A stretch of 64,000 nucleotides of DNA, taken from Termitomyces sp. T153. Lineage: Eukaryota; Basidiomycota; Agaricomycetes; Agaricales; Lyophyllaceae. Location of the stretch: positions 1 to 64,000 of the forward strand of contig JACKQL020000123.1 in assembly GCA_018296165.2 (NCBI GenBank), in the 5' to 3' direction. Each line of letters opens with the position of its first letter. The stretch's first letter is position 1. Below are positions 6,090-32,640 of this stretch, one piece after another. The translations under genes and the position numbers were made by a program. The notes beneath the pieces are model-generated. The model made no database searches, was not told where the DNA came from, and saw only the letters and a list, made by a program, of their open reading frames with translations.

Positions 6090-6109
6090 GCTCTATGACA
6101 AGTTGAAGT

Positions 6110-9692: not shown

Positions 9693-10487
9693 TGTCACAA
9701 CCCATCTCCAAGCCCCCAGACCTCACCTTGAACCACCCCAACAGCTTGCAGTTTAACCAACACCTCCTCAAATCCTCCCTACAATCTTCATCCACCCCCA
9801 GCACCTGCTATGGAAAACCCCAATGCTTCTTCTGTAAACCCTGACACTCCTCCAGCAGGCCCCATTACTTCTCCAACCTCCACCAAACACTTGGATGCCT
9901 CCAGTGCTTTTTCCAGCCCTTGGCACCACCATGCATCATGGATGTGCATTAGGGGATCACTGCAGCCTGTACACAAGATCAGATCCAACACTCATCCAAA
10001 AGTCACATGGTCTCATGAGCCCTGCTCTCAGACCCCAGTCTTGGAGGAGGTTACTTAACCAGTATTTAAGTTGTAGAGTAATATCAGTTGCAGTAGTCTT
10101 GATGTTACTTACATTTGTACCTCATCTCCATCTGGTTGTTCCAATCACTGTCTTGTACTATTTTAATTTTATCTCATTCTTGTCTTATCTTGATCATGTC
10201 TTGTCTCAATTCTCATCTTGTTCCATCTTGTCCATCCCTCTTCTGACTTGTGTGCCTTATTTTAACACTCTATTGCCTTTCATCTCTAGTCTCTGCCTTT
10301 AGTTCCACACCTTCTCCTATAACTCCATCCACATGCTCAAACCTCATTCTACATCTGGACCAAGGACCCATTACTTTGTACCTGATATTTCATCAATCCC
10401 CAGTCCCACTCCCTTCACTATGTGATCTAAGCAGCCCTGCCTTCCTGATAGCTGCTCCTAGAACTTAGTACCTGACACTTCAGTGCT
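9693..10487 (+). repeat. C element 5' LTR, left part
   Basis: It starts TGTCACAACC directly inside A3 RT sequence and follows the family B LTR layout (a shared stretch near GTAGTCTTGATGTTAC). It stops at about 10487 where family A pol begins. Its missing 3' part is found in inverted form at 31857-32028; together the two give about 967 bp, close to the 1030 bp of the copy B LTRs. The joins are explained by an inversion. Confidence 0.75.
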
Positions 10488-13400
10488 CATGAGTAGATGC
10501 CCCAGAAAGTGCTCTGCCTGCACCATGGAGGCTAGAGCAGAGCAATGGACTCAAGTCCAAGAGCATGCAGCCATCTGAGCATGTCATGCCAGACCTCTCC
10601 CCTTTGCTGATTTAGACCTCCTGGACCCCCCACCTCTGGCAATCCCTCATAGGGAGGCCCTCTATGAGGACAATCAGAGCAATGGCAGAGCCCTGGAGGA
10701 GGAGCATGGAGGGGAGTTTAGTGGTATATGCAAACCAGAGCTCCCAGATGAAGCAATAGAGGCAGGGGATTGAATTTATGTTACCACTATCCACCTGTTG
10801 CTCTCCATTGCAGAAATCAGGGCTAGCCAGACTACATCCCAGCAGCTAGCCCAGGCCTTTGCTGCCAACAACATGCCTCAAGAGTTCTGGGATGTAGTAC
10901 CCCTCTACTTGCATGCATTTGAGGATGTGTTCTCCAAGGCCTCCTTTACTCACTTCTAGAGCACAAGAGGTGGTACCACACCATCAAACTGCTGCCTGAC
11001 TCAGCACCCTCCAGCTGTAAGGTCTATCCCCTCATGCCTAGAGAGCAGGACAAGCTTGATGCCTTCCTCCAGGAGAACTTGGACTCTAGTCATATCCATC
11101 CATCCAAATCCCCAATGGCTTCTTTAGTCTTCTTCATCAAAAAGAAGGATGGCTCCCTCTGACTGGTACAGGACTATTGGGTACTCAATGCCATGATGGT
11201 GAAGAATTGCTACCCTCTCCCCCTCATCTCTGAGCTCATTAACAACCTCTGGGGTGTGCAATACTTTACTAAACTGGACATCTGATGGGGTTACAACAAT
11301 GTGCACATTCAGGAGGGAGACAAGTGGAAGGCAGCCTTCTGAACCAACTGGGGATTGTTTGAGCCACTTGTTATGTTCTTTGGTCTTACTAACAGCTCAG
11401 CCACCTTCCAGACTATGATGAACAACATCTTCTGGGACCTCATTGTGGAGGGTGTAGTATGCATATACCTTGACAACATCCTCATTTACACCAAAATGCT
11501 GAAGAAACACCATCAGATCACTTGTCTCATTCTGAAACACCTCTGCCAGCACTAGCTCTACCTCAAGCCAAAGAAGTACAAGTTTGAACAAACCTGGATT
11601 GAGTACCTTGGCCTGATTATCTCCCACAGAACTGCAAAGATGGACCCAGTGAAGGTGGCAGGTGTGGTGGAGTGGCCAGAGCCCCGGAACAAGAAGGAGG
11701 TATAGGCATTTCTTGGTTTTGCAAACTTCTACCAGAGATTCATTTAGGACTTCTCACATCATGCCCACCTGCTGTTTGACCTCATAGGAAAAGTTGTTAC
11801 ATGGAGCTGGGGACCTCTGGAGCAGATGGCCTTCAACACTCTCAAGCATGCCATGATCTCCAGACCTGTTCTCCTCTTCCTGGATGACAGCTCTCCCTTT
11901 GGCATAGAGGCTGACAGCTCTGACTTTGCCACTGGGGCAGTGCTCTCACAGTAATCTCTGGAGGATAGGAAGTGGCACCTAGTGGCCTTTTACTCCAAAA
12001 GCCTGAATGCTGTGGAGTAGAACTATAAGATCCATAACAAGGAGATGTTGGCCATCATCTGGTTATTTGAAGAGTGGCAGCACTTCTTGGAAGGTGTGTG
12101 GCACAAGTTCAAGGTCTGGGCAGATCACAAGAATCTTGAATACTTCTGGACAGCTAAGAAGCTCAATTGCTGGCAGGCCTGATGGTCCCTCTACCTTGCC
12201 AACTTTGACTTCTCCTTGCACCACAAGCCTGGCCAGAGTATGGGAGAACCAGACACCCTATCTTGGAGGGTGGACCACAGAATGGAGGAAGGGGATAATA
12301 ATAACATTGTGCTCCTCCACCCCAAACTGTTTGTGATCCAAGCTATGGAGGGCCTAGTTGTTGACAGAGCAGAGGTGGACATTCTCCAGGACATCCAGCA
12401 GGGTAATAGGGATGGTTGGCAGGAGGAGCTTGTGGCATAGGCCACTTGGTCGCTGAAGTCAAAGCATGCTACTGGTGTTAAGGTGGTCTATGCTGATGAA
12501 TGGGCCCTCTAAGACAGAATCCTGACCTTCTGAGACTGTATCTACATCCTCAACATCCCAGAGCTCCTTTGGAGGATTGTGAAGCAACACCATGACTCCT
12601 GCATTGCAGAGCACTCTGAGTGGTGGAAGACACTGAAGTTAGTATCACAGAACTACTAGTGGCCCCAGATGTCCTGGTACATTGGGTCCTACACCAGTAC
12701 CTGCAACCTCTGCTTCTGGACCAAGCCCCAATGCCAACTCCCCTATGGACAGTTACACCTGCTACTGATGCCTGTAGAATAATGGAGCATAGCATCTATG
12801 GACTTCATTGTAGAGCTTCCTGACACCCATAATTACAATGCAATCATGGTGGTGGTGGACCTGTATGGCAAGAGAGTGCACTTCATTTCAACCCACACCA
12901 CCTGCTCTGCCATGGGTGCTGTGAACCTGTACTGGAGGAATGTCTGGAAGCTCCATGGCCTCTCCAATGCCTATGTCTTGGATTGGGGACCACAATTTGT
13001 AGCAGAGTTCACCCACAAGCTCTACTGACTGCTCAGAGTAAAGCTCCACACCACCACTGCCTACTATCCACAGTCCAACAGCCAGATGGAGTATGTAAAC
13101 CAGGAGTTGGAACAGTATCTCTGCCTTTTCTGCAACAAGTGCCAAGATGACTGGGATGAACTCCTCCCTGATGCTGAATTCCAGTATAACAACTATGTTC
13201 ATGCATCCACCCAATTTTTCCCATTCTTCCTCAATACTGGACAGCACCCATGCATGAGTTTTGAACTCTGGGCCCAACCCTTGGAGAATGAGGCAGTAAA
13301 CAAATTTGTGAACTGAATGAAGAGGTTACAAGAAGAGGCCCAGGCTGCACTGGCGAAGGCAAAAGATGACATGGCACAATACTACAACTGCAGGAGGACC

Positions 13401-14219
13401 CTGGAGCACAGATATCAGCCTGGGGATTGAGTCTACCTGGATGCCTCTGATATTATGACTACCTGTCCCTCAAAGAAGCTGTCACACCACTAGTTAGGGC
13501 CATTTACAGTGGAACAACAGGTAGGACCCTTAGTCTATTGATTCCGACTCCTCATGGGGATGTGCCAGCTTCATCCAGTATTCAATGTGGTCAAGCTTAC
13601 CCTGGCTCCTAGAGATCCTATCCCAGGGCAACATCCACCACCTCTGCTGCCCTCAGCAGTGGTCAATAACAATAAAGAGTACAAAATAGAAGAAATCCTG
13701 GACAGCTGTTTATTCTAGAAATGACTATAGTACAAGGTGAAGTGGAAAGGCTATGGAATCAAGCATATTTCCTGGGAGCTATAGGAGAATGTACATGCCC
13801 CCAGACTTGTTAAGGAGTTCCACTAGAGATATCCAGATGCACTGCATGCCATATAAGGAGGGGGGGTGATGTCAGAGGACTTCCATTTCCAACCTCTGTG
13901 ACTGGTTCCAGCACTTCTGCAGCTTGTTTGACATCTCTGGGGCTCTTTCTAGAACTCTGGAGTTCTTCATATCCCCTCAGCAACCACTGCTCTAGAGTTA
14001 GGAGTAGCTCCAGTCACCTGTACAGTAGTTCCCATGCCTCTGCCACCCACTGATGTGCCATGCCAAGCAGTGGGGATCCTTAGACTTATTCTCTTTGGAT
14101 TTCCCTCTGCTAGGTGATTACTTACTGATTTGTATCATTGTCTACTCTGCTAATATACTTTGGATTCCCCTCTGCTAGCTGCATGACTCCAATTCATTGC
14201 TCCAGAGGTTGCCCTTACA
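10488..14219 (+). mobile_element. Family A chromovirus, half A2 (pol and 3' LTR)
   Basis: The alignment to A1 begins at CATGAGTAGATGCC (A1 about 2231), just after protease, and continues through RT (about 10900-11780, active site YLDN at 11466-11477), RNase H (to about 12340), integrase (about 12540-13330, with SMDFIVEL, DWGPQFVAEF and NQELEQ regions), chromodomain (about 13670-13830, VKWKGYG) and LTR. Several stops interrupt it, but the frame is better kept than in A1. The gag-protease half is not upstream; it lies at 32029-34340 on the other strand, sharing the same break and the same target duplication. Confidence 0.9.
13867..14219 (+). repeat. 3' LTR of the A2/A4 element
   Basis: It starts TGATGTCAGAGG after a GGGGGGG tract and ends CCCTTACA (353 bp). 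The flank AGCAG (14220-14224) is the exact reverse complement of CTGCT at 34341-34345 beside the A4 LTR. Confidence 0.9.
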
Positions 14220-15340
14220 AGCAGGAGTTGGAGGGAGTCACATGGAGAGCCATGGAGTGGTTGTTGGAGGTCCAGGAGTTGTAAGAGCAGCTGGGCCAGT
14301 TGGAGGCATGAGTGGAGCAATGTGGGGCCATGGGGGCAGTGGGGGTCAGGGCAGTGGCAGAGGCAGGGAGGCAGCATGAGCAGTGATTGGCCAATGAGGT
14401 GGCCTCCACACATAGGGGAGTGATGCATAAGTTTATAGAGTCCCATCCTCCTTGAATTGTACTAATGTGAGCTTGGCAGATTGGGTCCAGGAGCACTGCA
14501 TCTTCCTGAATGGGGTGTTGGCAGCACACACATTGATGCAGGATGAGCTAGTATAAGTGTTCAGTGGTTTGCCCTCAGAGTTGGTCCAGAGCTTCAGGCA
14601 GATGGGGAGGTTGCTGGTGGGGCACTAACAGAGGAACATAGTAGCTCCCAGAATTTGGTGGGAAGTAGCTACTGACATTAGGGAGCCTTTGCCTGGGCAG
14701 CTAAAGGTTCTAGTAGTAGTGGTGGCCCAGATAGAGGTAGATTTAGTAGGGAGGATAGTGGAGGCAGCTCAGGAAGAGGAGGGGGAGTAGGGAGGCCCAG
14801 ACTTTGTTCCTCTTATTTGTCTTGTACTTAGCACTAGCTCAACTCTCATAATATAGTGTACCTTGTAGCCTGTCTATACACACTTCTTAGACTTCTAGCC
14901 TAGATGATTAGATTCTCAGATTTTGTAAGGGAGTGAGGAAATGAAAACATGCAGGGGTTACTCATGGGAGTTGAGTCCCTAATGAATCTAGAGGCTGGAA
15001 TTATGCACACTAATGCTATCTGTGTTTGCTAGTCCTAAGTGTTTCAGGGCTTAGTGGGGTGTTGTTAATGAAAGTCCTGGAGTTTGATGAGGGCTCCATT
15101 GAGGTTTTTGCAAGGCTTCCAAGTGTTGTTCTCAAGTCTGTAGCCCTTCCAATGGACCAGGTAGTGGAGTTGACTGTGGACCAAGTAGAAGTCAAGGATT
15201 TAGTCAACTTTGTAGTGATATTTGATCTCAATCTTGACAGAGGGCAGTTGACTGGGGCATTGCTCAGGGAAGGAGTCCAGAGTATATTCTTCAAGGAGGC
15301 AGACATGAAAGATAGGGTGGAGGCCCTTCAGGCCCAGGCA
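14220..15340 (-). mobile_element. C element fragment: chromodomain and start of 3' region
   Basis: On the minus strand 15330-15026 encodes a decayed chromodomain matching that of copy B (23380-23040). Downstream, 14800-14450 matches the B region 22850-22500, which holds the antisense open frame. The family A LTR abuts it at 14219. At about 15340 the match to B stops abruptly and unrelated DNA begins. Confidence 0.75.
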
Positions 15341-15470
15341 CTGCTGGCACTTAATTGTATTTCCTTAGGAAAAAATCAAAAGGAAACCTGTTATGCCATT
15401 TTTTATATGGCAATTTCTGATGGAAAAAGTCTTTGAACAAAGGAAATTTGCCTTTTTTTATAGTAAAAAG

Positions 15471-17543
15471 CTATCCAAGAAACAGATGATAGGTTTTTTT
15501 GACTCTTTTTCCATTAGAAACATTTTCTAGCCCCAGCAATGAGGAGTAGGTGCAGTTGCTAGGCATTGACATCATTGCTGGGTACATTTCCCATCTCCCT
15601 TCCTCCCAGTCCTCTTTGCCAACTCCATTCACCTCCTGCCAAGTCAAGAATGCTTGACAGTTGCTTTGATACCCTGCCACTGTTGCTAATAATTGCTTAG
15701 CAACAGCAAACCTTGCCCTTGCCTCCAACAACTCTTCTCTTGCCCTCTTAAACTCCCTCTGGAACCACCTCTCCATTTCTACCACTCTCTTGTCATACCC
15801 TCTCAGCAAAGTGGCTAACATAAGTAGTGTCAGCAAGGCCAGGTCTTCACCCAGCCACTCCAGCTTATTGTTGCCCACTTGTCACAGCATGGTATGGGTC
15901 CAGGTTTCCTAGCAATACAATTATCAAATGTCAACTCACAAAAAAGAAAGACTTACCCATTGTCAAGTCCCCACTTCCTCATTGCTCTCCTCATCCTTCT
16001 CTACCTCCATTGCCTCTTCCTTAACCTCTTGACCTCCTTCAACCACTCCTCCACTTGTCACCATCTCTACCTTAGCTACTGTTGCCAAGAGAGTTCCCAC
16101 TCTCATCTCCACATCTTCATCTTGCTCCTCCCCTTTCTTATTGCTAGTGACCATCTTCTGTTGCTTAGTTAAAGCAACCAATGCTGGACTTGCTGCTTGC
16201 TTTTGTGCCAAAGGCATGTCATCACTGTTGTTGCTACTGCTGTTGCCCTTCTTGTTACTAGCCTCATCATTACTCTCTACCATCTCCCTACTCTTCTTCT
16301 GTTACTTCTCCTTAGCAACCATGCTCCCTCCCACTACTGTCCCTTCCTGAAATATTGGCAGGTTCAAGCTGGAATGCTTAACCTGGATTAGCTCCTTCTT
16401 TGCCACTAACTCCCATTGTCACTCCATGAAGCTCCTGGCCTGTTGTACAGAGACTGCCCTTGCCACTATCTTCCTGATAAATTTCCTGCCAGTGCTCCTT
16501 GACAACTCACCACCATAAGAATGCCCATTCTGTGTGCTATCACAGCAATAGCATAGCTGGGCCCCAGTGAGGTACTAGCACTCCTTTTAGTTATTTTTTG
16601 AATAGCAGTTGTTGCACTTTTTAAAAGCAGTTAGCAACTAAGATAGCAATGACTACTAAGAACTTACCACTCCTTGGCACTCCCTGAATGCTTGCTTCTC
16701 CACAGGTGATACTGTTGACTTCCTCTTTGCCCTCTGCAGCACTACTCCAGCATTCATGCCCATGTCTACTATTGTTGAGGCCTTCCTCCATCACAAAAGA
16801 TTTGCCAAGCATTTGTTAATAAATGTGCCTTCAATTAGTTTCTGTAACAATATTAGCAATGGAACAAGACTTACCTCAAATTCCTCCTTCTCCTCCTCCT
16901 CCTCTCTGGCCTTGCCTTCCCCCTTACCTTTACCTTTTGGGGTTGTTGCCACTCTTGGCAACATTGCCAACTCCTTAGCAATGCTGCCAGCCACACACTT
17001 GGGAGTGGAGGGCTCAGCCTCCCCAATGTCCCCTCAATTCATGCTAATGTCACCCCTGTAGCCCTTGCTATGCTCAGCCCCTATCATCACCACCAATTTG
17101 TATGGTAGGTGCTGGAAGAAAAACTAGTCATTAGGCAATAAGTCTTTGAAGAGCTGTAATTACCTTAGTGGTGTTGCTAGCCTTGGTGACATTGCTAGCA
17201 CTTACTGTCATCCCAGCCTCCAAATCCTCCAACAAGAACTCCAATGATGACAGAAGGGGAGCCTAGCAAAAATATTAATACTGTCATTAAGAAGAAAAGA
17301 AGAACTTACAAAGTGTTTATCAAACTCCCTGATCCAATCCTCTCCCTTGTACTGCTCATACAGCTGCTGACACTCCTTGTCAACAGCAGTCAACTCAGCC
17401 CACTCCATCCCACTACCTGCCATTTTGAACCAGCAAAGCCAAATCTTGAAAATAGCATTGACCACTAAGTGAGGGTTTGTTTCCAACAAATCACACACTA
17501 CAGCAAGGAGGCAATCAACCCAATCAAGGAATGCCTGGGCCAT
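15471..17543 (-). pseudogene. Hypothetical multi-exon gene remnant in the C segment
   Basis: Minus-strand exons appear at 17543-17208, 16812-16621, 16283-15963 and 15878-15471. The first reads as a helical domain (FLDWVDCLLAVVCDLLETNP, then ELTAVDKECQQLYEQYKGED). The third is low-complexity and acidic (EDEDVEM-type, Lys/Glu/Ser-rich). The last has a long amphipathic helix (MERWFQREFKRAREELLEAR). I do not recognise a family. The coding direction equals that of gag in the same element. Stops and CG loss suggest decay. It could be a captured host gene or part of another transposon. Confidence 0.4.
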
Positions 17544-18594
17544 GGTGCACTTCTCAAGTTATAAGATTCAGATTGCAGAGGAGAGTAAGAGATAAGAGGT
17601 GAGAAGGAAGAACTAATGAAGTCCAGCTGAATTGATAGCTGCTTTTATTCTTACTACTCTAAGTGCACAGACCATGCAAGCAATCATAGGACTTTGGGTT
17701 GACTGATGGCAGTCAAGATTTCAGCATAGAGGAGGATGATAAGACACACTTGTCACTGAGCACTGTTTTTAGCATTTCTGATTGGATAGCAGCTGATTAT
17801 ATTGTACATGATCTGGCACAAGTCATGACACTTAGCATGTGAGGTCTAGCTCCAAGGTCTAGAATAATGTGGCATTTGCATGGGATTTTAGTGACCACAA
17901 GACTTAATGGATCATGAGCCACATCAGGTGGAGTCTGGACTTTGGATCTAGAATGACAAGGCCAAGACCTTTCTTAGTGATGATTGCTAGCAACATTTCC
18001 TAGCAACAACACTGCCTCTGTCCTAAAAAGGGATATATTGACAGTCATGTGATTTCTTACTTATTATTTTTCTTGTCAAGCTTACAAACATACTTAAACA
18101 GCATCTACACTTCAGATATTAACATTGGAAATGCTTGTTTCTTGTGATTGACAGTTTTTATACATTATATTGACATTGCATATGTATACTTGGTTACCAA
18201 ACTGATATTCAGTATGTAGCATAAACACTTTGGCAGATGCTGTTACTAGCAGTGACTAATATTTCCTTTCCAAATACTATACTTACAAACAGCATAAATA
18301 CTGCCTGTATGTAGAGACAAAAACAACAGAGTACTGTTCCTCCTCACTAGCTCTCAGCTTACCAACTTCAGATCTCTTATTACTCTTTCTCTTTACATTG
18401 CCAACAACTTAGTGATAGTCTTGACAACTTCAACCTCAACTTAGTGTGGTGCCAACTGCAGGTACCCTTAGTGTTACTATGACTTAGCAATGCTAGCAAC
18501 TATGGCTCTTCTCTTCAAAAACTACTTCCATCTGGTCAAGGCTCTCAACTGACAATGCTCTGCCATTCTCATACAGATGCACATTGACCACCTC

Positions 18595-19581
18595 TCACTG
18601 AACTGCCACTTCTTCTACATTAGGCATGCCAAATCTCTGGCCTGTCCCTACTTCCAAAGCATAACAGTTGAGACCACCAGGCACTTCCTCCTTGAGTGCT
18701 TCCAGTACAGAAATGAATGACACATACACCTTGTCTGCCTGCTCAAACAAAAAGCTGATTCCATTACAAACCTCCTGTCCTTCCCATCTCACATTACTGT
18801 ATGCTGACACATATCTACTGGTGAAATAGTGCTCACTGTAATACATAACACCTTTTGTCTTATAGTTGTTAGTCATGGATCTATCCATTGTGTAAATAGC
18901 AACAGTCTTGTTGATTGTGACAGACACAGACAATATGTCAAAACAAAATATGTGAGGTGCATGGATAAATTAGAACACCCTGATGAGGAGTTGTTCACAT
19001 ACCCAGGATTGTGATCCAGTCTGCAACTAGAAGTTTTTCATGTGTTCATGTATGGATTGACTATCTGACAACAGTATGACTATGCATGACTTTGTGCTTG
19101 ACTGCTGATGGCTCCTTTTATGCCACTGTAGACATGTTGTATATGAACCCACTATAACTTGTTTGTTTACTGAGAGTTCATCAACTAATGTGTGGATGGA
19201 CATATACTTGCCAAAAGAAAACTCAGTGTGATTTTTAGAATTGAGTTTGATTCACAGCCACTCTCTGCATTCCTCCAAGGCTTTGTGATCTCCAGGTCTA
19301 GCTTTTGTGAATGCTCTTGCAATATGTCTGCACAATTGGGGGCTGATATCTCTCATTTTAACAAGCCACCTGTACAGGTCTTTCCTGCACAAGTTGAACA
19401 ATATCAAAATGACAGAGTCATATATGCAGCTGTTAAGTTTCCAGTTGCAAGAAAAAAGAGTCTGCCAGTCATGGAACACCAACAATGAGTATTCTGCACA
19501 GCTCAACTTCCTCTGTTTATTTGAACATGAAGCCATCTGTCCACTCATCTTCTGTTTTTGTAGATTGTCAAGAGTTTTCAC
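18595..19581 (-). pseudogene. Unrecognised coding remnants, right part of the C segment
   Basis: Two minus-strand open stretches are seen. The one at 19581-19252 includes MRDISPQLCRHIARAFTKA. The one at 18933-18595 includes EVCNGISFLFEQADKVYVSF and continues past a stop as VVNVHLYENGRALSVESL toward 18480. Composition is protein-like, but no family is recognised and the two stretches may not belong together. Confidence 0.3.
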
Positions 19582-19596
19582 AGAGCTTCTTGCTTT

Positions 19597-20342
19597 GTAG
19601 GTATAATGTGGCCAAGGTCATCCATGAGCTCTCAAGTTGGAAAATTATAGGCTTAGCTTGGAATATTGTGAGACATTGTATTATGGAGATCCTCCATTTT
19701 TAGTGGCTGCAGCTTGTAAAGAGTCCTGGTTTCTAAATGGTGAGCTTGCCTTCCCAAGATAATGCATTGCAAGTGTTATTCTAGGTGTTCTGAGTTTGGT
19801 GTGGGGGTTTAGCATTGTAATACTAGTAGTAGTTGTTCCTGCCTCCATACTGAGGAGAAAGATGTTCATGGCCAGGTGCCATCTGCTTGGGAGTCTGCTA
19901 TTAGAAGGTCCACCACCCAGGAATAGGCTAGTGTTGCCTAGGGGGGTCCTAAGGCCCAACAGGAAAGGAGGGGTTCTTCAGGAGTTGGTAGTCCAAAGTT
20001 GCTAGTAGTGATGGGGGGTCAGTTTGGTAGGGGGATTGTGGGAATGGAGGGTCAGAGCTGGCTGATGAGGAAAGGGGGTCTAGATGCTCTGGGGCCTGTG
20101 GATTGATGCAGGCAGGCCAGGATATTTTGGTGGGCAGGAGTGCATTCTGTGGGACATTACTACAAGAGGTGCATGGGTTGACATGGAAGGGCCTATTCCA
20201 GAAGATTCCTGGAGTTCTGTTATAAAGAGCAGTTTCCCTGCTAGGGATCTTTGGCTCATCAATATAGGAAAGAGTGTGGTTGGAAGTGAGATCATTGTTA
20301 GTGGAAATGGATTGAGGGTCTCTGAGTGTGTGGCTTGGATTT
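19597..20342 (-). pseudogene. C element gag region, part next to the B insertion
   Basis: This matches copy B from about 28165 to 28850 (shared ATGAGCTCTCAAGTTGG, then a Pro/Gly/Asn-rich stretch), so it is the middle of the gag region of C. It ends at the target site of B (GATTT, 20338-20342) and resumes beyond B at 30862. The frame is badly broken. Confidence 0.7.
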
Positions 20343-21372
20343 TGTCAGGTTCAGCTGATGACAGGGGCTCAGCTACACTGGTGAATCCTCATTAGGTGGA
20401 TGCAATGTCCTGCACTTATAACCTAGCACTTTGGAAGTGGTGCAGAGGGGTGAGACTTGTGAGGGGAAGCTATGAGAGGTGGTCTGAGCAAGTCCGGAGT
20501 GGTCTAGGAGTCTAAGACCAAGTATATTAATGTTGTGCTTGGATGAGCATCAGGAACAAGTTTGTAGGCATATAAATGGACTGCAGGGTAGATGGGGGCT
20601 TTGTTAGGGTTGGGGGCAGAGCTGGAGTTTGACAGGGGGATCAAGTAAAACTTGATGGGTTTGGGGCCAAGTGAAGAGTGAGGTCCAGAGTTGTTGTAAG
20701 AATGTTTTTGGGGTTCATAGCACATGCATGGAGTTCATATGGTTGTTGGAGATGGGAAGAACTTAGAAAAATAAAAGAAAAGGAGACAATCAAGACAAGA
20801 TGGAAATGAGGCAAGATGAGACAGAGAAGAAGATAGATTCAAGACTAAAAATGGGAATGGAGACAGAATCAAAATGCAAGACACAGAAAACTAGCAAATA
20901 CAAGTAATATTAAGACTAGAGTATGAGGAGCTACTCTATGTCTTATATACTGACTACTGGATAGCTCCAGAGGACAGTGGGTATGGTGGTGGGGCTCAAT
21001 GGAGCTGTGTGGAGCCAACTGGTGTCAGATACAATCAAGGAGTGGGCCACTGTGACATTCTGATGGAATCATCTAGGAATGCAGGCCATTCCAAAGTCAT
21101 TGTGATACTCCAGGGCAGGTCAGGTGAATTAGGGCAATGAGTCAGAGGCATATAATGGGGTTAGGAATAGTGGGGATGGTTCCAGGGGTTTAGAAGAAGT
21201 ATTGATGGCTGTGGAGAAGGCATCATAGTCAGTCAGGGGGCTGTTGGGGTTTGCTGGAGAAGCATTGGAGTTACCCAGTGTGGGCACAGAGAGTGGGTGG
21301 GGGTTGGAGGAGTTGGGCAGGGGTTGAGGAGGGCTGAGAATAATGTCAGGGGCTAGGTTGCAGGTTGTGACA
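20343..21372 (-). repeat. 3' LTR of B
   Basis: On the + strand it starts TGTCAGGTTCAG and ends GGTTGTGACA. A TATATAAG box (minus strand, about 20942-20950) lies in a block also conserved in the C 3' LTR near 37195. The bases beside it, read on the minus strand as AAAGGAGGGGTGA, are the likely polypurine primer site. Confidence 0.9.
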
Positions 21373-21403
21373 TCACCCCTCCTTTAGTATCGAGACCCTC
21401 AAG

Positions 21404-22850
21404 ATGCATGTGCATAGTTTGGGGATTGGCGGGGCATGGGAATCAAAGTCAAGCAATATTGATCAAACTGCAGTGAGTGGTGGCAGCATGAGGAACAAAG
21501 TCGAAGCATGGCCACCATTCATCAGGGGCTCCTTCCAAGCTATTAAAAAGGGTCAGATGTACTCTGCAGTTCTCAAACTCCCTACAATGTCATCTTCCAC
21601 CTACTCCTCAGCAGCATCTAGGTCCTCATCTGTGTCATCCCAACTGTCCTCCTCCAAGGGCTCCAAGAGGCTTCAAGATTGTTGTTGAGTCAAGGCAATA
21701 TACTGCAGTTGTAAGTGCGATTCTCCTTTGGTTATACTCCAGAGTTGCTGATTTAGTCCAATCAGAATTGTCTGCAGCTGTGGCCAGCCTGTTGGGTCTC
21801 CCCTCCCCAGATGGAGTTTTGCCAGGGTCAGTGTCAGAGTGTTGGCAGGGTAGTCCTTGAGGCCCAACTTCAACCTGGAGCAGGTCCAGGTCATCCTGGA
21901 GGTGTTACGGATTCCTCAGGTGGAGGTGACCCCAGAGCAGTTTGTGGAGGCAGTCAGATAGGCATGGGGTCCCCTGACCCTGGAGTGGTGTCAGGCAGAG
22001 GCTCTAATGAGCACCTAGCATCCTTCTTTTTCAAATTCTGATCTAGCTTCACAGTGTGCCCTTTGTACTTGCTACAGAGAGCATTGCAGTTTTAAGGAGC
22101 CAGTGCTGGGGTCCCAATGGGACACCTTAGTGTGCATTCCCTATCATTTGTGATATGAGAAGTGCCCTATTTCATTGAGTTGATGAGTGGTCTATGTGTT
22201 GAAGAAGCAGGAGTGGAACATGGAGTGGGTGGCTGTGCAGTTGCTTGGGGGACACAAGGGGAAGGTGTTGGGTCAAGGGTCTAGGGCAGAGCATGGTGGC
22301 AGTGCAGGGCAGTCAATGAAGGTGGGACCTCTGTAAAGGGGGTGGAGGGAGAGGGTCTCTACAGTGCATGACAAGGGGAAGCAGAGGGCATCCTCTGCTC
22401 CAGAGGCAGGGCCCAGCAAGTGGCTGCAAGGGGAGGAGTTGATGGCAGGCTCCCTGGGGCCACACATCTATTCCTCTGCATTGGAGGCCTTTATGGGGGA
22501 GTCTGGAACACTAAGAATTGTCTAGACTGGGTCCAGCAGCACCACATCCTCCTGGATGGAGCATCAGCTGCTTATGCCTCAATGCAGGATGGGATGGTGT
22601 GGATGCCTGGGGAGCTCCTATTGGAATTGGAGCAGAGGACTTGACAGATAGGGAGATTGCTAGCAGAACATTGGCAGAGGGGCATAGCAGACCTCAGGGC
22701 ATGGTGGGAAGTAGTGACCAATGTCAGGGAGCCATTGCTAGGGCAGCTGGAGGTCCTGGCCATTGTGGTGGCTCAGATGGAAGTGGATTTGATTGGAGGT
22801 GTGGTGTGGAGGGCTCCAGAGGAGGAGGAGTGAAGGGGCCCTTTTTGGAC
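21404..22850 (+). pseudogene. Antisense open frame in the 3' region of B
   Basis: This runs opposite to gag-pol, between chromodomain and 3' LTR. It starts MHVHSLGIGGAWESKSSN, then has a Ser-rich stretch with SSAASRSSSVSSQLSSSKG. Next comes a helical region around 21850-22020 (LEQVQVILEVLRIPQVEV, FVEAVR, AWGPLTLEWCQAEALM). After a frame change near 22480 a second helical region follows (LDWVQQHHILLDGASAAYAS, RLLAEHWQRGIADLRAWW, LAIVVAQMEVDLIGG). Several stops are present. Both helical regions recur in element C, the first at 35269-35030 and the second at 14450-14800. The pattern looks like a real accessory protein. Function unknown. Confidence 0.55.
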
Positions 22851-23034
22851 TCTTGATTTCTTGCTGCCCCATGCTCCTCCCTGTTTTATAATTGTACTTG
22901 TAGTTTGTCTGTACCAAATCTTCTTGCTATCTGTTGATTGTGTGAGGTTTGGGATTGTGTGGAGAGAGAGTAAGTGAAAACACATAGGAAATTACTTATG
23001 GGAGTTGAATCCCTAATGAATCCAGAGGTGGAGG

Positions 23035-25963
23035 TTACGCCCACTGATGCCATCTGTGCTTGCTAGTCCCGGGGGTCCTGGAGCTTGGTGGGGTGCCATT
23101 GATGGAAGTCCTGGAGTTTGTCAGGAGCTCTTTTGAGGTTTTTTTGGGGTTTCCAAGTGTTGTCCTCAGGTTTATAGCCCTTCCAGTGGACCAAGTATTG
23201 GAGTTGGCTGCAGACCACATGGGAGTTGAGGATTTGGTCGACCTTGTAATGATACTTGTCTTCGACTTCAATGGGGGGCAGTTGGCTGGGGTGTTGTCCA
23301 GGGAAGGGGTCCAGAGCATGTTTCTCAAAGAGTCAGATGTGAAATCTGGGGTGGAGGCCCTTCAAGCCCAAAGGTAGATTGAGCTTGTAGGCATGCATGG
23401 AGACCTTCCAGAGGACTTTGAAAGGGCTGAAACATTTATAATCAAGTTTGATGGAAGGCCTCCAGGTCTTGAAATTCTGTTGATTGAGCCAGACCAAAGT
23501 GCCTGGGGGCTAGTCAGAGGTTGGATTGCATTGGGCATCAGTATATTTGGAGTAGGCTTGATTGGCAGTGCAGATTTTGTCCTTTGTTGGCATAGAAGTG
23601 GGAAACTCCATTGGCAGAGTGTGGCATGTTGTTGTAGGTAACTAGTTGTTCTGTAAATAGTTAATGTAGAGGCAGAGATATTGTTCCAATGTCTGGTTTA
23701 CTTGTTCTGTTTGTCTGTTGGTCTCCAGGTGATAGGCAGTAAAGAGATTGGTTTTGATTTCAAGCACCTTGCATAGCAATTGCCAGAAATGGGATACAAA
23801 CAGAGGTCCACAGTCAGAGATGATGTCATCTGGAAGTCTATGCTTGGAGAATATGTATTTGAGAAATAGTTTGGCAAACTCTGGAGCATTGTTAGTAGTG
23901 TGGCAGAGGATGAAGAGGGCTTGTTTGGTGAGGCAGCAGACAACAATGAAGATTGCATCAAAACCTTTGGAGTTAGGGAGTTTAATGATATGATCCATCA
24001 ATATTGAGGACCAGGAGCATTAGCCAATGGGGAGGGGCTTCAATAATCCATGGGGGTGATGGTGGGGTACCTTGGCCCAGAGACAAGGTTCACAGGCCCT
24101 TACATATTGCGTGACATCCTTCTTCATTCCTGGCTAAAAGTAAGTCCAGGAGATGAGCTGAAGGGTCTTATGAATTCCTGGGTGTCCCCAGAGCTTGTGG
24201 TTATGGTGTTGCCAGAGTATGTTGAGGCAGACAGACTTGTGGTCCAGAGCATAAATTTGTCCACTCCGGAGCAAGAGACGGTGGTCCAGAGACAGTGTGA
24301 AGGGGTTTTTGGTGCTTGACTCATTGGCAGAGTTGTGGTGGAGGTTGTGCTGGGTGAAGAAGGAATCTGGAGGTGCATTTCTGATTTGATGGAGGATTTC
24401 TTCTTTATTTAAAATCAGCACAGCATGTAGATGTTTGGGGGGGATTACCACTCAATGGTTGAACGTGTTCCATTTGGCTTCAAATGACTTTTTTGGATAC
24501 ACATTGGACCTTCAAGTGAGGGCATCAGGCTTCGCACTGAGTTGTCCAGGGTGGTAGTAGATGGTAAAATCATACTCCAAGAGGGTTTTGGACCATCAAA
24601 GTTGGTGGCGGCTGAGTTTCTTTGTAGTTGTGAAGTATTGCAGATTGTTGTGGTTGGAGTAGACTTAGATGTGGTGTGGGGATCCCTTGAGGTAGGCCCA
24701 CCACTGATGGAAGGCTTCAATGATTGCAAGGAGCTCCTTATCATAGATGTTATAGTTGAGCTCTGTGAGGATCATCAAGCAGGTGTAGAAGGCAATGGGG
24801 TGGAGATTCTTTCCTCCACAATCCAACTGGGAGAGTATTCTAGTAATGGCATAGTCAGAGGCATTGCACTTGAGCACAATTGGCAGGGAGGGGTTGAAAT
24901 GGTGGAGGACTGGAGCGGAGGTGAATGCCTTTTTCAGGAGGAGGAATACACTATGGCACTTGCTGTTCTAATCCCAAGGGGTGTCCTTCTGCGTGAGTCA
25001 GTTGAGGGGTTTAATGATTCCAGAGTAGTTGTCAATGAATCATCAGTAAAAGTTAGCAAACCCTAGAAATGACTGTACCTCCTTAATGTTCCATGGCAGG
25101 GGCCAGTTGAGTATTGCATCAACCTTGGTGGGATCCATGTGCACACTGTCAGGTGTGACAATGACTCCAAGATATTTGACCTCCATCATGTGGAAGGGAC
25201 ATTTCTCAGGTTTGGCATGAAGGTGGTACTCCCAGAGTCATTCCAAGATGTGGCAGACATGCTCCAGATGCTCTGCCAGTGAATTTGAGTAGATCAGTAT
25301 GTTGTCCACATATACAATGATAAAAATGTCATTCATGTTGTGGAAGATGTCATTCATGAAGTACTGAAAAGTAGCAGGGGAGTTAGTCATTCTGAAGGGC
25401 ATTATGAGGTACTCAAAGAGGCCATAGCAGATGCAGAAGGCAATTTTCCATTCATGTCCCAGGGCAATCCAGACATTGTTGTAGCTGAAGCAGAGGTCTA
25501 CTTTTGTGTAGATCTTGGTGCTGTGGAGATGATTAATAAGATCCTCAATCAGGGGGAGAGGATACCAGTTCTTTTTGGTGACTTTGTTGAGTCCCCAATA
25601 ATCCACACAGAGTCGGAGTGACCCATCCTTCTTCTTGGCAAACAAGACTAGAGCGCTGGTGGCAGAGGTTGATGGGCATATGAATCCCTTGCCAAGCATG
25701 TTGTTGAGGTATTCCTTCAGGGCCCAGAGCTTGACCTTGGACTTGTTGTAGATTTTGCTAAATGGGAGTGAGGCACCTTCTTTAAGGTCAATCTTGTAGT
25801 TGTAGGAGTGGTGCAGGGGAAGTTCTTTGGCACTCCCTTCAGAAAACATATCAGCAAATTCATGATACTCCAGGGGAACTACTTTGGATAGGGTCTGTTC
25901 CTCCATTTTATTCTCCAGTGCAGCAATTTCTGCATGGAGGTGCTCCTCAGGTAGGGCTGGCAT
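23035..25963 (-). pseudogene. pol of B: RT, RNase H, integrase, chromodomain
   Basis: RT is open from 25963 to 25238 (241 residues) with KKKDGSLRLCVDY, YTKVDLCFSYNNVWI and an active site YVDN (about 25301-25312), so the second Asp is lost. A short repeat MNDIFHNMNDIF precedes it. RNase H (about 24877-24665) keeps ECNASDYAI-like and FYT motifs. The integrase zinc region is at 24451-24134 and its core at 24001-23642 (MMDHIIKLPNSKGFDAIFIV, DCGPLFVSHFW). The chromodomain at about 23380-23040 contains [17 protein letters not shown]. Stops and frame changes separate the blocks. Confidence 0.88.
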
Positions 25964-26369
25964 AACTTGCAGCTAGAAGGTGGAGGTGCCATCTTGTAGA
26001 AGGCATGCAAAGGGGACAGTGCCAATGATTTTAATGTTGAGGCTTCCAGAGTTGATGGGGGTGGAAGGTGGGGCAGTAGCGGTCAAGTTCAGGGTAGTAG
26101 TGGAGTCAGTTGGAGGGGTTGAGCGTCACTGGCTAGAGTATCGCAGGCCTTTGTATCAATTCCAAGGTATGTTGGGAAGCAGCCATCATAATTTGATTGA
26201 GGGTGACCAAGGCAGAGTTGTGCTTCCTTCACCATCAGGGTTGCTGTTGGAGGTCAAGAGGCTTTGGATTACTCCAGGAATGCTAGTGCTAGGGTCAGAG
26301 ATGTCAGAGTCCAAGATAGACTGGAGGTGGAGGAGGATGGTGGCTGCTAAACTTGCTTCAGGGCTGGGG

Positions 26370-27358
26370 ATTTGCATAGTGAGGTTCTTTCAGTCAATGT
26401 CAGGGTTAATGTCTTGTAGCTATGGAAGTCCAAGCACTATTGGAGTCAATGGGGGCAGTTGGATAATGAGAAGCCAGGCCTGAAACTGCAGGTCATTGTT
26501 GAGGATGAGGGTGTTGTTATGGTATCGAGTAATACCTGTTGTAGTGGGGCTTCTATCAAAGAGTTGGAGTTTGAGAGGTTTGTTGAGGTCATTATGTCAG
26601 AGGTCAAGTTGACTGCTGATGAAGGTACTGGAGGTGCCACTGTCAACAAGGGTGGGGAGTATCTTGGGCAAGCCGTCAAGTTAGACATTGATGATGAATG
26701 ACTATGTGAACCTGGAGCAGAGCTGTAGAGGAGTCCAGGAGTGGTCGATCATGGTTCCGGAGTTCTTGGAGGAGGGTGAGACATCAAAGGGTACCAGTCC
26801 AGAGTCGGTGGGATTGTTCTGGTCGAGGTGGAGGGTGAGGCTGGGCTAATCAATGCAAGGGTTGATGGAGTGGAGCCATGAGAAGCCTAAGACGATGGGG
26901 GCAGAGGGGTGTAGTTTCATGATGAGCAGCTGGAGTTCTTGTTGTCATTCATTGGCAAAGGTCATGGTCATTTCCAGGCAGTGTGTAATGTCTCCAGTGG
27001 GGGTGGAGTTGCCATCAAAGAGTTTGAGGGGGATTGGAGTGGGAAGGGGTTGGAGGAGGTGGGGAGTGAGCACTACTAGGGATTCATCAATGAAGTTATT
27101 TGTAGTACAACTGTTGACTAGGGCAGAGATGGAGTGGTTGGAGAAGGGGGAGGTGGTGCAGAAGAGGAGGGTGGTGGAGGAGTGGGAGGGGAGGTGTGCT
27201 GGGAGGTTGTTCAGGACAAGTACTATTGCATGGAGAAGTGTGGCCAAGGCAAAGAAGATATCAGAGTCTGGTCTGCAGTCTAGTGCGTCTTCAAGACCTA
27301 AACTGCTGACTTGTTTTCCATAAACTAGTAGTTGCAGTCTTCTCTGTTGATTGTCCAC
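26370..27358 (-). pseudogene. Tandem retropepsin-like domains of B
   Basis: Two copies of a retroviral-type aspartic protease fold are read in order. The first (about 27124-26830) has ALVNSCTTNNFI, LKLFDGNSTPTGDI and IVLGFSWLHSINP. The second (about 26690-26370) has TLVDSGTSSTFI, LQLFDRSPTTTGIT and IVLGLPWLQDINP. Each has the catalytic loop, the flap region and the ILG-type C-terminal motif of family A2 proteases. The first has lost the catalytic Asp and Gly (VNSC), while the second keeps DSG. Retropepsins act as homodimers, so a tandem pair could act as a single chain. Stops are present in both. Confidence 0.65.
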
Positions 27359-27599
27359 ATGGCATGTCCCATCACCTGATGTTTAGGACAACTGCAGATA
27401 AAATGTCCCTGCTCACTACATAGGATGGATATGCCCTCCTTCCATCATTTCTCCTGTGTATCCTCTGGTACATTGATTTATGGCCTATCCCAAATCTTGT
27501 TCATGCACAGGGCTTCCTGATCATTGGCAGAGTCTGGAATATTGTGGTAGTCATTGGGGTCAGCATCCAGGGGCCCCAGAGTCTTGTGGAGGTCAGTGG

Positions 27600-29850
27600 C
27601 ATTGAGCTGGGCAGGTGGGCATTGTTTCAGGGGTCAATTTGCACTGATAGTTCCTTAGCCCAGAGAGAAGTGGAGCATGGAGTTGGCAGGAATTGAAGAT
27701 TGAATGCTGTTGGTTGCTCCAGCCTGCCAGTTGGTGTTACTAGAGGTGTTTCACAGGGTCTGGGGTACTGTGTTTTTGCTGTGATCTTCCCAGTAGTATT
27801 GGTTGACCTGGGTAACAAGGGCCTTGTACCCATTGTAGGTGGTTTGCTTGGGTGCAAGGTGGAGGATGTCCTTGATCCATTGAGGCAGGGTGCAATGGAG
27901 GGCAAAGCAGAGAGCATTGTAGTTTCACCCAGTTTTGTAGGCTTCTTGTTCAAATCATAAGATGAAGGTCATGAAGTGCTTGTTGTCATGCATTTGGAGG
28001 TTGAAGAGATTTTCCTCTGCCTCCACTATGGTATCAAAGATGCCAAACTTACTTGAGAATTCCTGGGTGAAAGTGAGCCAATTGGAGAGTACAGAGTTGT
28101 TGGAGTCAAACTGAAGTAGTGCCATATAATAGTCAAAGGTGATATCCTGCAAATATGCTGCAGTAAAGGCTACTCATGAGCTCTCAAGTTGGAAGATGAT
28201 GGGCTTAGCTTGGAACATAGTTAGACACTGAGTTAGGAAGATATGCCACTTCTGGGGGCCATGGCCAGTGAAGGGTTCAGGCTTCTGGATGTTGAGCTTT
28301 CCTTCCCAAGCCAGTGCATTGTGAATATTGTCTTGTGGGTTTTGAGTTCAGGATGGGAGTCTGGCATTGTAGTAGTAATAATAATTGTTTCTGTTTCTAT
28401 ATTGGGAGAGAAAGTTGTCTATGGCTAGGCCCTATCCTCTAGGTGGTCTGCTGTTGGGAGGTCCACTGCCAGGGGGTTGACCTGCATTGCCCAGGAGAGG
28501 CCCAGGGGCCCATTGAGGAGGAGGGGGTCCTCTGGGGGTGGGGAGTCTGAAGTAGTTGGCATTGGTAGGAGAGTTGGGCATTGGAACAGGTGGGGGGCAA
28601 GGGGAATTAGTGGGAAAAGGGGGTCAGGGTGCCTCAGGGCCTATAGGCTGCCTTGGAGGGGCAGGGATGCTCTGGCAGAGTGGAGGCATGTTGGTATGGG
28701 GGGCACAGAGGTCAAAGTAGGGAGGTCTGTCCTGCAGAGGGCTATTGTGCAGAGCAGGCTCATCAGCAGGATTGCCAGGCTCATCAATGTAGGAAAGTGT
28801 CTGATTATCATTATTGATGCACAGGGGCAGCCATTGGCAATGGAGTTTGGGGATGGTAGGCTGATCCCATGTTTGAAAGGTGCTAGGAATGGAGTTGGCC
28901 TAGGGGCAAGTAGAGAGGGCCAAGATGTAAGTGGTGGGTTGGTCAAACAGTCTCCCTACAGAGTTGAGGTTCTTCAAGATGTTGAAGGCTGCATTGAGTT
29001 CTTCTTGCTGGCAGGGAAGGAGAGGTGGGGCTTCACTTCATGTTCCGATGGATTTCTCACATTGCACATGGAAGGAGCAGGAGGGGTCCAGAGGATCTTT
29101 GAAGGGGCTAGAGTTCAGACTGGTGTGGATTTCTTCAACCAATGTGTAGAGCTCATTCTGCAAACTAGCATCAATGCCCAGGGTGCCTTGCATAGTTTCT
29201 GGGAGGTTTTCTTGCAAGTAGTGTTTGTGAAAATCAAGAAGTCAATCTGCCCAGACTTCTGGAGTTGCAGAGGTGTTGAAGTAGCCTAAGTTGACAAGGA
29301 GAGTGCAAGTGTGTTTTGCAAATTCTGTGGGAGAGAGGCAGAGGGAGCGGAGGACTTTGTTGTGCTGTTGAATGTAGGCTTTAACCCTTTGCTGTCTGGG
29401 AGATGAGGGAACTTGAGCAGAGAGTGGCAGACAAGGGGGAGAATAATTATCTGGGTACTCTGGAGGGACTGGAGCTGCAGTGGGGACCAGGTACACATAG
29501 TAGTGAGTGGGGGGGAGGTAGGTGGGGTTGGAGGGTGCTGTAGAGTATCCTCCAGGGTACAAGCAGGAATTGTTACTATTGGCAGGGAATGTTGGAGGGC
29601 AGTGCCAGCCTAGGGAGATTCCCTGGCTGATGGAAGGTGCATAGAATGCCTGGTTGGGGTCAGGAGTCCAGTGGTGAGGAATATACTGATCTATGAGGAG
29701 GCCTGGATAGAATGGGGCATAGAGATTTTCAGAGACTGGCCAACTATAAATGTTGGTTAGGTAGCTGGCAGGGTTGTACATGGGGTTATATGCAGACATT
29801 GAGAATGGAGTAAGGGGGAGCCTTGATATTATCTCAGGTTCCACTGACAA
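27600..29850 (-). pseudogene. gag region of B
   Basis: From 29850 an open frame of about 200 residues is rich in Pro and Tyr (SMSAYNPMYNPASYLTNIY, PTHYYVYLVPTAAPVP) and ends with a helical part (QQRVKAYIQQHNKVLRSLC). Its first codons lie in the LTR end. After frame changes, 28152-27600 carries the capsid-like region (FDYYMALLQFDSNN, LSNWLTFTQEFSSKFG, AEENLFNLQMHDNKHF), the Retrotrans_gag signature. A clear CCHC knuckle was not found. C carries the same N-terminal part at 30867-31856. Confidence 0.75.
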
Positions 29851-30861
29851 TAAGGGCTCAGCTACACTAGTGAATCCTTACTAGGCAGATGCAATGTCCT
29901 GTGCTTATAATCTAGCACTCCGGACATGGTACAGAGGGGTGAGACTTGTGAGGGGAAGCTATGGGAGGCAGTCTGAGCAAGTCTGGAGTGGTCTGGGAGT
30001 CTGAGACCAAGTATATTAATGTTGTGCTTGGGTAAGCATCAGGAACAAGTTTGTAGGCACATAAATGGACTGCAGGGTAGATGGGGGCTTTGCTAAGGTC
30101 AGGAGCAGAGCTGGAGTTTGACAGGGGGATCAAGTAAGACTTGATGGGTTTGGGGCCAAGTGAAGAGTGAGGTCCAGAATTGTTGTAAGAATGTTTTTGG
30201 GGTTCATAGCACATGCATGGAGTTCATATGGTTGTCAGAGATGGGAAAAACTTAGGAAAATAAAGAAAAAGGAGACAATCAAGACAAGATGGAAATGAGG
30301 CAAGATGAGACAGAGAAGAAGATAGATTCAAGACTAAAAATGGGAATAGAGACAGAATCAAAATGCAAGACACAGAAAACCAGCAAATACAAGTAATATC
30401 AAGACTAGAGTATGAGGAGCTACTCTATGTCTTATATACTGACTACTGGATAGCTCCAGAGGACAGTGGGTATGGTGGTGGGGCTCAATGGAGCTGTGTG
30501 GAGCCAACTGGTGTCAGATACAATCAAGGAGTGGGCCACTGTGACATTCTGATGGAATCATCTAGGAATGCAAGCCATTCCAAAGTCATTGTGATACTCC
30601 AGGGCAGGTCAGGTGAATTAGGGCAATGAGTCAGAGGCATATAATGGGGTTAGGAATAGTGGGGATGGTTCCAGGGGTTTAGAAGAAGTATTGATGGCTG
30701 TGGAGAAGGCATCATAGTCAGTCAGGGGAACATTGGAGTTTGCTGGAGAAGCATCAGAGTTACCCAGTGTGAGCATGGAGGGTGGGTGGAGGTTGGAGGA
30801 GTTGGGTGGGAGTTGGGGAGGGCTGAGAACAGTGTCAGGAGCTAGGGAGCAGATTGTGACA
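29832..30861 (-). repeat. 5' LTR of B
   Basis: It has the same length as the 3' LTR (1030 bp) and high similarity; the differences seen are mostly transitions. It starts TCTCAGG instead of TGTCAGG on the + strand. The adjoining internal bases (minus strand TAATATCAAGGCTCC) are the expected primer site, but I cannot name the tRNA. Confidence 0.88.
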
Positions 30862-31856
30862 GGTTTAGTAGGTTGGTTCCAGGTGTGGAAGTCACTGGGA
30901 ACAGAGTATGCCCTGGGCATGCCAAGAGATCCATAGCATGAGTGGCAGGTTTGTTGAAGAGCCCTCTTATGGGGTTGAGGGACCTTATTCTTCTTGCTGG
31001 CAAGGGATGAGAGCCAGGCCTTTATTTGATCTATGCTCCAATTGATTCCTCTTATTGTACATAGAAGCAGGTCAGATCCAGTGGGTCTACAAATTGTCAG
31101 GGCTTTGAAGTGGTGGGATTTCTTTGACCAGAGTGCATAGTTCATTTCAGAGGTTAGCATCTATTCCCAAAGTGTTTTTTGTGTTCTTGGAGAAGGTGCC
31201 CAGTTGGTAGCATTTGTGGAAGTCAAGGAGTTGGTACACTCACATCTCTGGAGTTCTAGAAATATTGTGAGATCCAAAGCTGATGATGAGGGCATGAGTG
31301 TGTTTGGCAAACTTTGCAGAGGAGATGGGAGGGAGCAGAGAACTTCATTGTGCTGCTAGACACAGGCTTTAACCCATTGCTGTTTACAAGAGGGTGGAGT
31401 TTGAGCAAGGTGTTAGGGCTGAGGGAGGGAGTAATTGTCAGGTTGTTCTGGTGGGACCAGGGCTGCAGCAGGGACTGAGTAGGTGTAGTAGGAACCTGGG
31501 AGAAGAAAGGCTAAATTGGCTAGGATTGCGGGTGCCCACATGGCTGTTTGTATCTCAAGTAGCCCTCTAGATAGTATGTGTGGATTAGGTCCCTTCTATA
31601 AGGTACAACAAAGAGTGTTGCCAGTCTAAAGGCATTTCCTGACTGACAGAGGAGGTGTAGAGTGCCTGGTTCCAATCTGGAACTCAGAATTGAGGAGCTG
31701 GCACAGCATAGCAATCTGTGGATAGGGCTGGATAGAATAGAGCATAGTAAGTTTTTGATACTGGCCTACTATAAACATTGGTTAAGTAGCTGATAAGTGG
31801 ATATGCAGGATTATACATAGACATTAGGAATGGGGTAAGGGAGAGTCTTGATATTA
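30862..31856 (-). pseudogene. C element gag region, 5' part
   Basis: This matches copy B from its LTR end inward (SDIISRLSLTPFLMSMYNPA at about 31866-31800; SSLASKKNKVPQPHKRA near 31000). Its first five bases GGTTT are one half of the B target duplication. It continues on the other side of B at 20342. Frames are broken. Confidence 0.75.
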
Positions 31857-32028
31857 TATCAGATTCCACTGACTATAGGGGCTCAGATCCACTTACTAAG
31901 CAGATACAATGTCCTACACATATATTCTGTATTCTGGCAGATTTCATACACAAGGAACTTACAAGGTTAGATTTGGAGAGTGGTCTGAGTAAGTCCAGAG
32001 AACTCCAGGGAAGTAGTGCAAGTAAGGG
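31857..32028 (-). repeat. C element 5' LTR, right part (inverted)
   Basis: This matches the gag-side end of the B LTR (29832 upward: TTCCACTGAC, GGGGCTCAG, then GTGGTCTGAGTAAGTCCAGAG) but stops after about 172 bp, where family A protease begins. It supplies the part of the LTR missing at 10487. Confidence 0.75.
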
Positions 32029-32640
32029 ATAGTCACCTCTCCTTTGGTCCAATCAACCTTAGGGTTATGCTCTCAGAGCCACATAAACCTGAGGATCATG
32101 TCTTGCCTTCCCAAGCTAATAACAGCAAATACAGTGTGCTTCATGTGGATCTGATAGCAGAGAACCAGGTCAACCATGGAGCTAATTGCACTGGCTTTGT
32201 TGGGTGTTCCATTGATGTTGTAGACAGAAATGGGCTTGGAAAGGGGCTGCATGGGTAGGCCATGGCATTTGACAAACTCTGAGTCCAGAAAAAGTCCTAT
32301 TGCTCTGCTATCTAGGAGAGCTGCAACTCTGCAGTTTTGCTAGGTGTCCATTGTCTCAATCTCCACATCAAGGCACAAGGAATGGGCAGACAAACCAGAG
32401 GCCATCATGTACTGTTGAGGCATTCAGTGCACCCAAGCGGGGCTGTGCTGTTGGACCTTCAAAGGTGTGGGAGAGCTTGGCAAGGGCTCCAGAGTTAGTG
32501 TTTGTACATCTGGAAAGAGGCTTTGAGGTTCTTTTGTCTCAAAAAAAGGGCATTAGAAAAGGCAGTTTCATTTTCTATCATCAGACAAGAGAACCTGTTA
32601 GCACCTAGTGACAGAGGTGTACACCTTATCTGTTGCTTGA

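What the first reader, a model, noticed from the sequence alone, without database searches (positions are those of the whole stretch)
10488..32028. A 21.5-kb inversion that cut one retrotransposon and one LTR can be reconstructed
Seen directly: the family A half A2 (+) begins at the same codon where half A4 (-) ends. The outer flanks are AGCAG (14220-14224) and CTGCT (34341-34345), exact reverse complements, as expected for one target duplication turned around. At the same two junctions a family B LTR is cut: its left part is 9693-10487 and its right part, inverted, is 31857-32028 (about 967 bp together, full LTR about 1030). Reversing 10488-32028 restores both the A element and the LTR. Two independent sequences being mended by one move makes chance unlikely.
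Basis: partly seen in the sequence, partly recalled or inferred. Interest (0 to 1): 0.8.

Follow-up and report, generated by a model that had tools for sequence, protein, structure and literature searches.

The report
Inversion through nested dead retrotransposons
A 21.5-kb piece of a Termitomyces-like fungal genome appears to have been flipped end for end inside a pile of dead, nested retrotransposons, cutting two of them at near base-exact points; the reconstruction is solid, but this is an ordinary kind of chromosome scar.

Summary
Observation confirmed; inversion reading supported. All pieces were compared apart. (1) A4 (32029-34340, -) and A2 (10488-14219, +) meet with a 3-bp overlap in 7 of 7 fetched family A copies plus A1, and in 20 of 20 copies pairable from hit coordinates. 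(2) The LTR parts 31857-32028 and 9693-10487 are neighbours elsewhere in the genome: 10 of 24 usable rows (8 places) have exactly 3 bp between them. Bases balance: no net gain or loss. (3) New: A sits inside a larger B-like element. A's two outer flanks are contiguous in other copies with exactly 5 bp between them in 10 of 19 loci, the length of A's target duplication AGCAG. One inversion explains all three. Against: A's two LTRs differ by a 20-bp unit and are no closer to each other than to other copies; the 20-bp mismatch also occurs in 5 of 9 unbroken copies. No long homology was found at the breakpoints, and no scored match crosses either junction by more than 6 bp. Two breaks plus end joining fit best. 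Misassembly is unlikely but cannot be excluded without reads. Correction: the cut LTR is a distant relative of B's LTR, not a B LTR. Ordinary; low interest.

The parts
10488..32028 (.). inverted segment, 21,541 bp
   Evidence: both ends join unrelated sequences whose partners lie at the other end
10484..10491 (.). junction 1: LTR part L | A2; 3-nt uncertainty at 10488-10490
   Evidence: the 39 other scored matches of a 200-bp probe cover the A side and reach at most 6 bp across (40 of 246 candidates scored)
32025..32032 (.). junction 2: LTR part R | A4; 3-nt uncertainty at 32029-32031
   Evidence: the 39 other scored matches of a 200-bp probe cover the A side only (40 of 442 candidates scored)
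1..6091 (+). A1, nearly complete family A LTR retrotransposon (the contig begins inside its 5' LTR), used as reference
10488..14219 (+). A2, 3' part of the split A element; 3' LTR 13870-14219
14220..14224 (+). target duplication AGCAG of the A insertion, one copy
32029..34340 (-). A4, 5' part of the split A element; 5' LTR 34340-33971
34341..34345 (-). target duplication AGCAG (CTGCT on +), other copy
9693..10487 (+). LTR part L (outer part of the cut LTR); strand in the sense of the B-like element, inferred from the reverse transcriptase of B
31857..32028 (-). LTR part R (inner part of the cut LTR), next to the internal sequence 30862-31856; strand inferred likewise
14225..20338 (-). body of the B-like host element of the A insertion (Q flank at 14225); holds a further genome-wide repeat at about 16000-18500
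20343..30861 (-). element B, nested in the B-like element inside the inverted segment; LTRs 93.4% identical; flanks GATTT/GGTTT (4 of 5)
30862..31856 (-). B-like body next to the cut LTR, collinear with B 28856-29831
34346..35300 (+). B-like body on the other side of the A insertion (P flank)
35302..36410 (-). separate B-type LTR inserted in the body
36790..37827 (+). outer LTR of the B-like block; not a matching partner of the cut LTR; inner limit approximate

Best explanation
In a Termitomyces-like fungus, retrotransposon A inserted into the body of a B-like LTR retrotransposon. Later two double-strand breaks, one inside A and one inside the B-like element's LTR (172 bp from its inner end), released a 21.5-kb segment (10488-32028) that was rejoined the other way round by end joining, with at most 2-3 bp of microhomology and no net gain or loss of bases. 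This left two halves of A and two parts of the LTR at opposite ends and in opposite orientation. Shown: the three broken adjacencies and their near-exact fit. Inferred: that chromosome breaks and end joining did it, and that A was in place first.
For: A adjacency: 3-bp overlap in 7 of 7 fetched copies plus A1 and in 20 of 20 copies paired within 50 bp from hit coordinates (39 A2-side places against 63 A4-side places; 19 of the 39 found no partner in these capped lists; at least 3 of the 20 are also). LTR adjacency: exactly 3 bp between R and L in 10 of 24 rows, 8 places. Base accounting: the LTR core is GTG, GCA or ACA in the 8 places, the A core is CAT in A1 and 6 of 7 copies and TAT in 1, and the junctions hold ATG and ATA, so 6 nt before and 6 after. 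Empty site: the two outer flanks of A are contiguous with exactly 5 bp between them in 10 of 19 loci; in the best copy, L026, the sides are 75% and 79% identical (site printed). AGCAG stands at both outer ends of A. No other scored match crosses either junction by more than 6 bp (40 of 246 and 40 of 442 candidates scored).
Against: No reads or second strain were available; the junctions rest on one assembly, in which contigs C104 and C163 share an identical tested stretch and C135 holds an identical inverted pair. A's own two LTRs differ by a 20-bp unit, are 86.9% identical against a mean of 87.8% with other copies, and show 5 transversions, the most of the ten pairs compared (0-4 in the nine controls); 5 of the 9 controls share the 20-bp mismatch, and 2 of 9 also have an own pair below their mean with others. 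Nine of 19 loci did not give 5 bp at the empty site (3, -1, -1, -13, -16, 35, -31, 1157, none), and the gap nearest to 5 was taken where several alignments existed. The outer ends of the B-like block do not match each other, so at least one other rearrangement happened there.
Confidence: 0.91

Rival explanations
1. Assembly error: the segment lies the other way round in the real chromosome.
For: The region is repeat-rich; the contig begins inside an LTR; other contigs share identical stretches.
Against: By general knowledge assemblers flip segments at shared inverted repeats, but the 172-200-bp neighbourhoods of the two breakpoints share no exact word longer than 10 bp (no shuffle control) and the junctions join unrelated sequence. 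Two false joins at exactly reciprocal points would be needed. The full-length A copies listed are 78-87% identical to A4, which reads should tell apart (inference).
Confidence: 0.06
2. Ectopic homologous recombination between inverted repeats flipped the segment.
For: Inverted A and B-type copies are plentiful in the block.
Against: Such exchange leaves whole or chimeric repeats at both ends. Here an LTR is joined to an unrelated internal region with 2-3 bp in common at most.
Confidence: 0.01
3. A2 and A4 are halves of two different A elements, truncated independently.
For: Their LTRs differ by a 20-bp unit, are no closer to each other than to other copies, and have the most transversions of ten pairs compared.
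Against: The 20-bp mismatch in 5 of 9 unbroken copies; base-exact fit; AGCAG at both outer ends; the outer flanks are contiguous in other copies with exactly 5 bp between them in 10 of 19 loci.
Confidence: 0.02

Closest known systems
Simple two-break chromosomal inversion repaired by end joining (general knowledge)
   Same: two breakpoints in unrelated sequence, reciprocal junctions, tiny or no microhomology, bases conserved
   Different: nothing clearly different; both breakpoints happen to lie in transposons, which makes the former order readable
Ty3/Gypsy LTR retrotransposons (families A and B)
   Same: TG...CA LTRs; 5-bp target duplications (AGCAG for the split A; CAATC in copy L022; GATTT/GGTTT, 4 of 5, for B); reverse transcriptase before integrase in B
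   Different: decayed, CpG-poor copies without long open frames
CpG-biased C-to-T hypermutation of repeats in Tricholoma matsutake (PMC6980582; abstract and passages seen)
   Same: CpG-directed loss in transposons, excess of transitions
   Different: not compared quantitatively; here 52 CpG where 2113 are expected in 1-37828

Membership tests
Two-break inversion with end joining | both broken sequences are contiguous in unrearranged copies | tested here: met
Two-break inversion with end joining | little or no homology between the two breakpoints | tested here: met
   2-3 bp at the junction; longest exact word shared by the 172-200-bp neighbourhoods is 10 bp
Two-break inversion with end joining | junctions present in the living chromosome (reads) | not testable with these tools
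   no reads held
Inversion by recombination between inverted repeats | long inverted repeat across both junctions | tested here: not met
   probes across the junctions match other copies on the A side only, at most 6 bp beyond
Ty3/Gypsy (element B) | reverse transcriptase upstream of integrase in the element's sense | tested here: met
   RVT_1 at 25241-25972 (-) above cut-off; Integrase_H2C2 at 24137-24451 (-) above and rve at 23645-24019 (-) below cut-off
Ty3/Gypsy (element A) | reverse transcriptase upstream of integrase | tested here: inconclusive
   RVT_1 at 3178-3531 above and at 2863-3174 just below cut-off; rve at 4455-4649 weak (E 0.01) and below cut-off
LTR retrotransposon (element A) | two LTRs with TG...CA ends and a short target duplication | tested here: met
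   LTRs beginning TGT and ending TTACA, AGCAG on both sides
LTR retrotransposon (element A) | tRNA primer site and polypurine tract | not tested
   not looked for

The most novel reading that the evidence does not exclude
The exchange was not random breakage but a recombinase- or transposase-like reciprocal exchange at a 3-bp core, and such base-conserving flips recur in the CpG-stripped repeat blocks of this fungus.
Probability: 0.05. Interest if true: 0.45.

Novelty: new member of a known kind. Interest (0 to 1): 0.22.

Why it matters
It is a clean example of how nested transposons record a past rearrangement nearly to the base: two breaks, no bases gained or lost, and an order of events that can be read (B-like element, then A, then the flip). 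Its junctions would make easy markers for comparing strains. It does not point to a new mechanism.

Tried and rejected
Rejected: recombination between inverted repeats; independent truncation of two A elements (one search is partly against this rejection, see the Against line). Looked for and not found: an allelic, uninverted copy in the same assembly. The best other match was 91% over half of a flank probe and 87% for the A4 half, and no scored match crossed a junction by more than 6 bp; the lists are capped at 40 scored candidates, so this is not proof of absence. Led nowhere: tRNA scan, 0 genes; paper search for Lyophyllaceae LTR elements, 0 papers; Termitomyces repeat searches, 3 papers each, judged unrelated from the listings; inversion-breakpoint searches, 7 papers and 1 paper, listings only; two passages of PMC12543289 seen, with no mention of CpG or Termitomyces in its main text. 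The first LTR alignment had the parts on the wrong strand and was redone. One search failed on a gap-cost setting and was redone.

Full report
Setting. The window is the first 64 kb of contig C123 (131,431 bp) of a 72.4-Mb, 307-contig genome. A 913-aa open frame at 58517-61255 is 98% identical over 97% of its length to a Termitomyces sp. J132 protein. A reverse transcriptase frame at 44347-45543 has unnamed proteins as its top hits; the best hits with a species name are Tricholomella, Hypsizygus and Termitomyces, which I recall as Lyophyllaceae (Termitomyces checked). The host is therefore Termitomyces or a close relative. Positions 1 to about 37.8 kb are nested, decayed LTR retrotransposons with almost no CpG (52 found against 2113 expected in 1-37828); CpG stays rare to about 41 kb.

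The A element. A1 (1-6091) is the local reference. A2 aligns with A1 from base 2231 and A4, on the other strand, up to base 2233. With the two halves searched separately, 7 of 7 fetched genomic copies and A1 have them contiguous with the same 3-bp overlap. From hit coordinates alone, 20 of 39 A2-side places could be paired with one of 63 A4-side places, and 20 of 20 pairs overlap by 3 bp. The lists hold only the best 40 scored candidates, which is why 19 stayed unpaired; at least 3 of the 20 are copies already.

The cut LTR. R (31857-32028) and L (9693-10487) were searched apart. Of 36 loci, 24 hold R and the first 300 nt of L on one strand. In 10 of the 24 rows (8 places) the gap is exactly 3 bp; the other 14 range from -55 to 48 bp where alignments stop short or indels lie; 12 loci show R only. 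Read from R to L, copy L003 has AAGTAAGGG, then GTG, then AGCACTGG; R ends in AAGTAAGGG and L begins AGCACTG. So the two sides were once neighbours. The LTR belongs to a B-like subtype, not to family B itself.

Third adjacency. The sequence outside A4 (from 34346) and outside A2 (from 14225) aligns with one B-type body, collinear with B 21721-22505 and 22524-23370. In 10 of 19 fetched relatives these flanks are contiguous with exactly 5 bp between them; nine are not. Five base pairs is the length of the AGCAG duplication at both outer ends of A. This is an occupied-versus-empty site comparison, made with the flanks apart: A inserted once, into this B-like element, and the inversion then carried one flank away.

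Base accounting and mechanism. Before the event, judged by other copies, 3 nt lay between R and L and 3 nt at the A breakpoint; now 3 nt lie at each junction (ATG at junction 1, ATA at junction 2, read from R to L). Either CAT of A was doubled by fill-in and 3 nt of the LTR lost, or a 2-3 bp match was shared; the data do not separate these. No longer homology was found there: 10 bp is the longest exact word in the 172-200-bp neighbourhoods. End joining after two breaks is the simplest account (inference).

An objection tested. A's own LTRs are 86.9% identical, differ by a 20-bp unit and are no closer to each other than to other copies (mean 87.8%). Of 12 other copies tried, 9 gave both LTRs; 5 of these 9 show the same 20-bp mismatch, and own-pair identity runs from 86.6 to 94.6%, below the mean with other copies in 2 of 9. 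A's pair has 5 transversions against 0-4 in the nine, which is mildly against one element. The mismatch in length is a family habit; the empty site and AGCAG weigh more in my judgement.

What does not fit. The outer LTRs of the B-like block are only 51-66% identical, their flanking 5-mers on the plus strand are TATCC and ATGAC, and the A-like sequence left of 9693 has no partner found right of 37828. The block has had at least one other exchange or deletion. This does not touch the three adjacencies.

Order of events. The B-like element came first, A went into it, the inversion followed (inference from nesting). Element B, nested at 20343-30861 with LTRs 93.4% identical, may have come before or after the inversion.

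Verdict. A well reconstructed, ordinary inversion; the main remaining doubt is assembly, which needs reads.

Noticed in passing
window 1-43000: CpG is almost absent in the repeat block (observed/expected near 0) and returns to about 1 between about 41 and 43 kb; LTR pairs differ mostly by transitions (41:4 in A, 62:6 in B). Fits CpG-directed hypermutation of repeats.
   Followed up: partly
window 9693-10487 with 31857-32028 versus 36790-37827: The end LTRs of the B-like block are too different (51-66% identical) to be a pair, and their flanking 5-mers differ: the block looks chimeric.
   Followed up: partly
window 6438-9692: 3' part of a further A-like element (A3), cut off where the LTR begins at 9693; no 5' part was found in the window.
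   Followed up: partly
A-family LTRs in L018-L023 and L075-L091: A 20-bp unit is present in one LTR and absent in the other of the same element in 5 of 9 copies: frequent slippage, perhaps during reverse transcription.
   Followed up: partly
G000 contigs C104, C163 and C135 (L092-L099): C104 and C163 are identical at 10000-10300 but not alike at 50000-50300; C135 holds an identical inverted 301-bp pair at 44900 and 88160, while a mirrored pair nearer its middle does not match. Possibly duplicated or alternative-haplotype sequence.
   Followed up: partly
window 58517-61255: 913-aa open frame with internal repeats (offset about 96 bp), 98% identical to a Termitomyces protein that its source names Halomucin.
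   Followed up: no
window 44347-45543: 399-aa open frame with a reverse transcriptase domain, relatives named jockey or transposon BS by their sources, normal CpG content, outside the decayed block.
   Followed up: no
window 40021-40074 and 40209-40262: An exact 54-bp direct repeat near the edge of the CpG-poor block.
   Followed up: no
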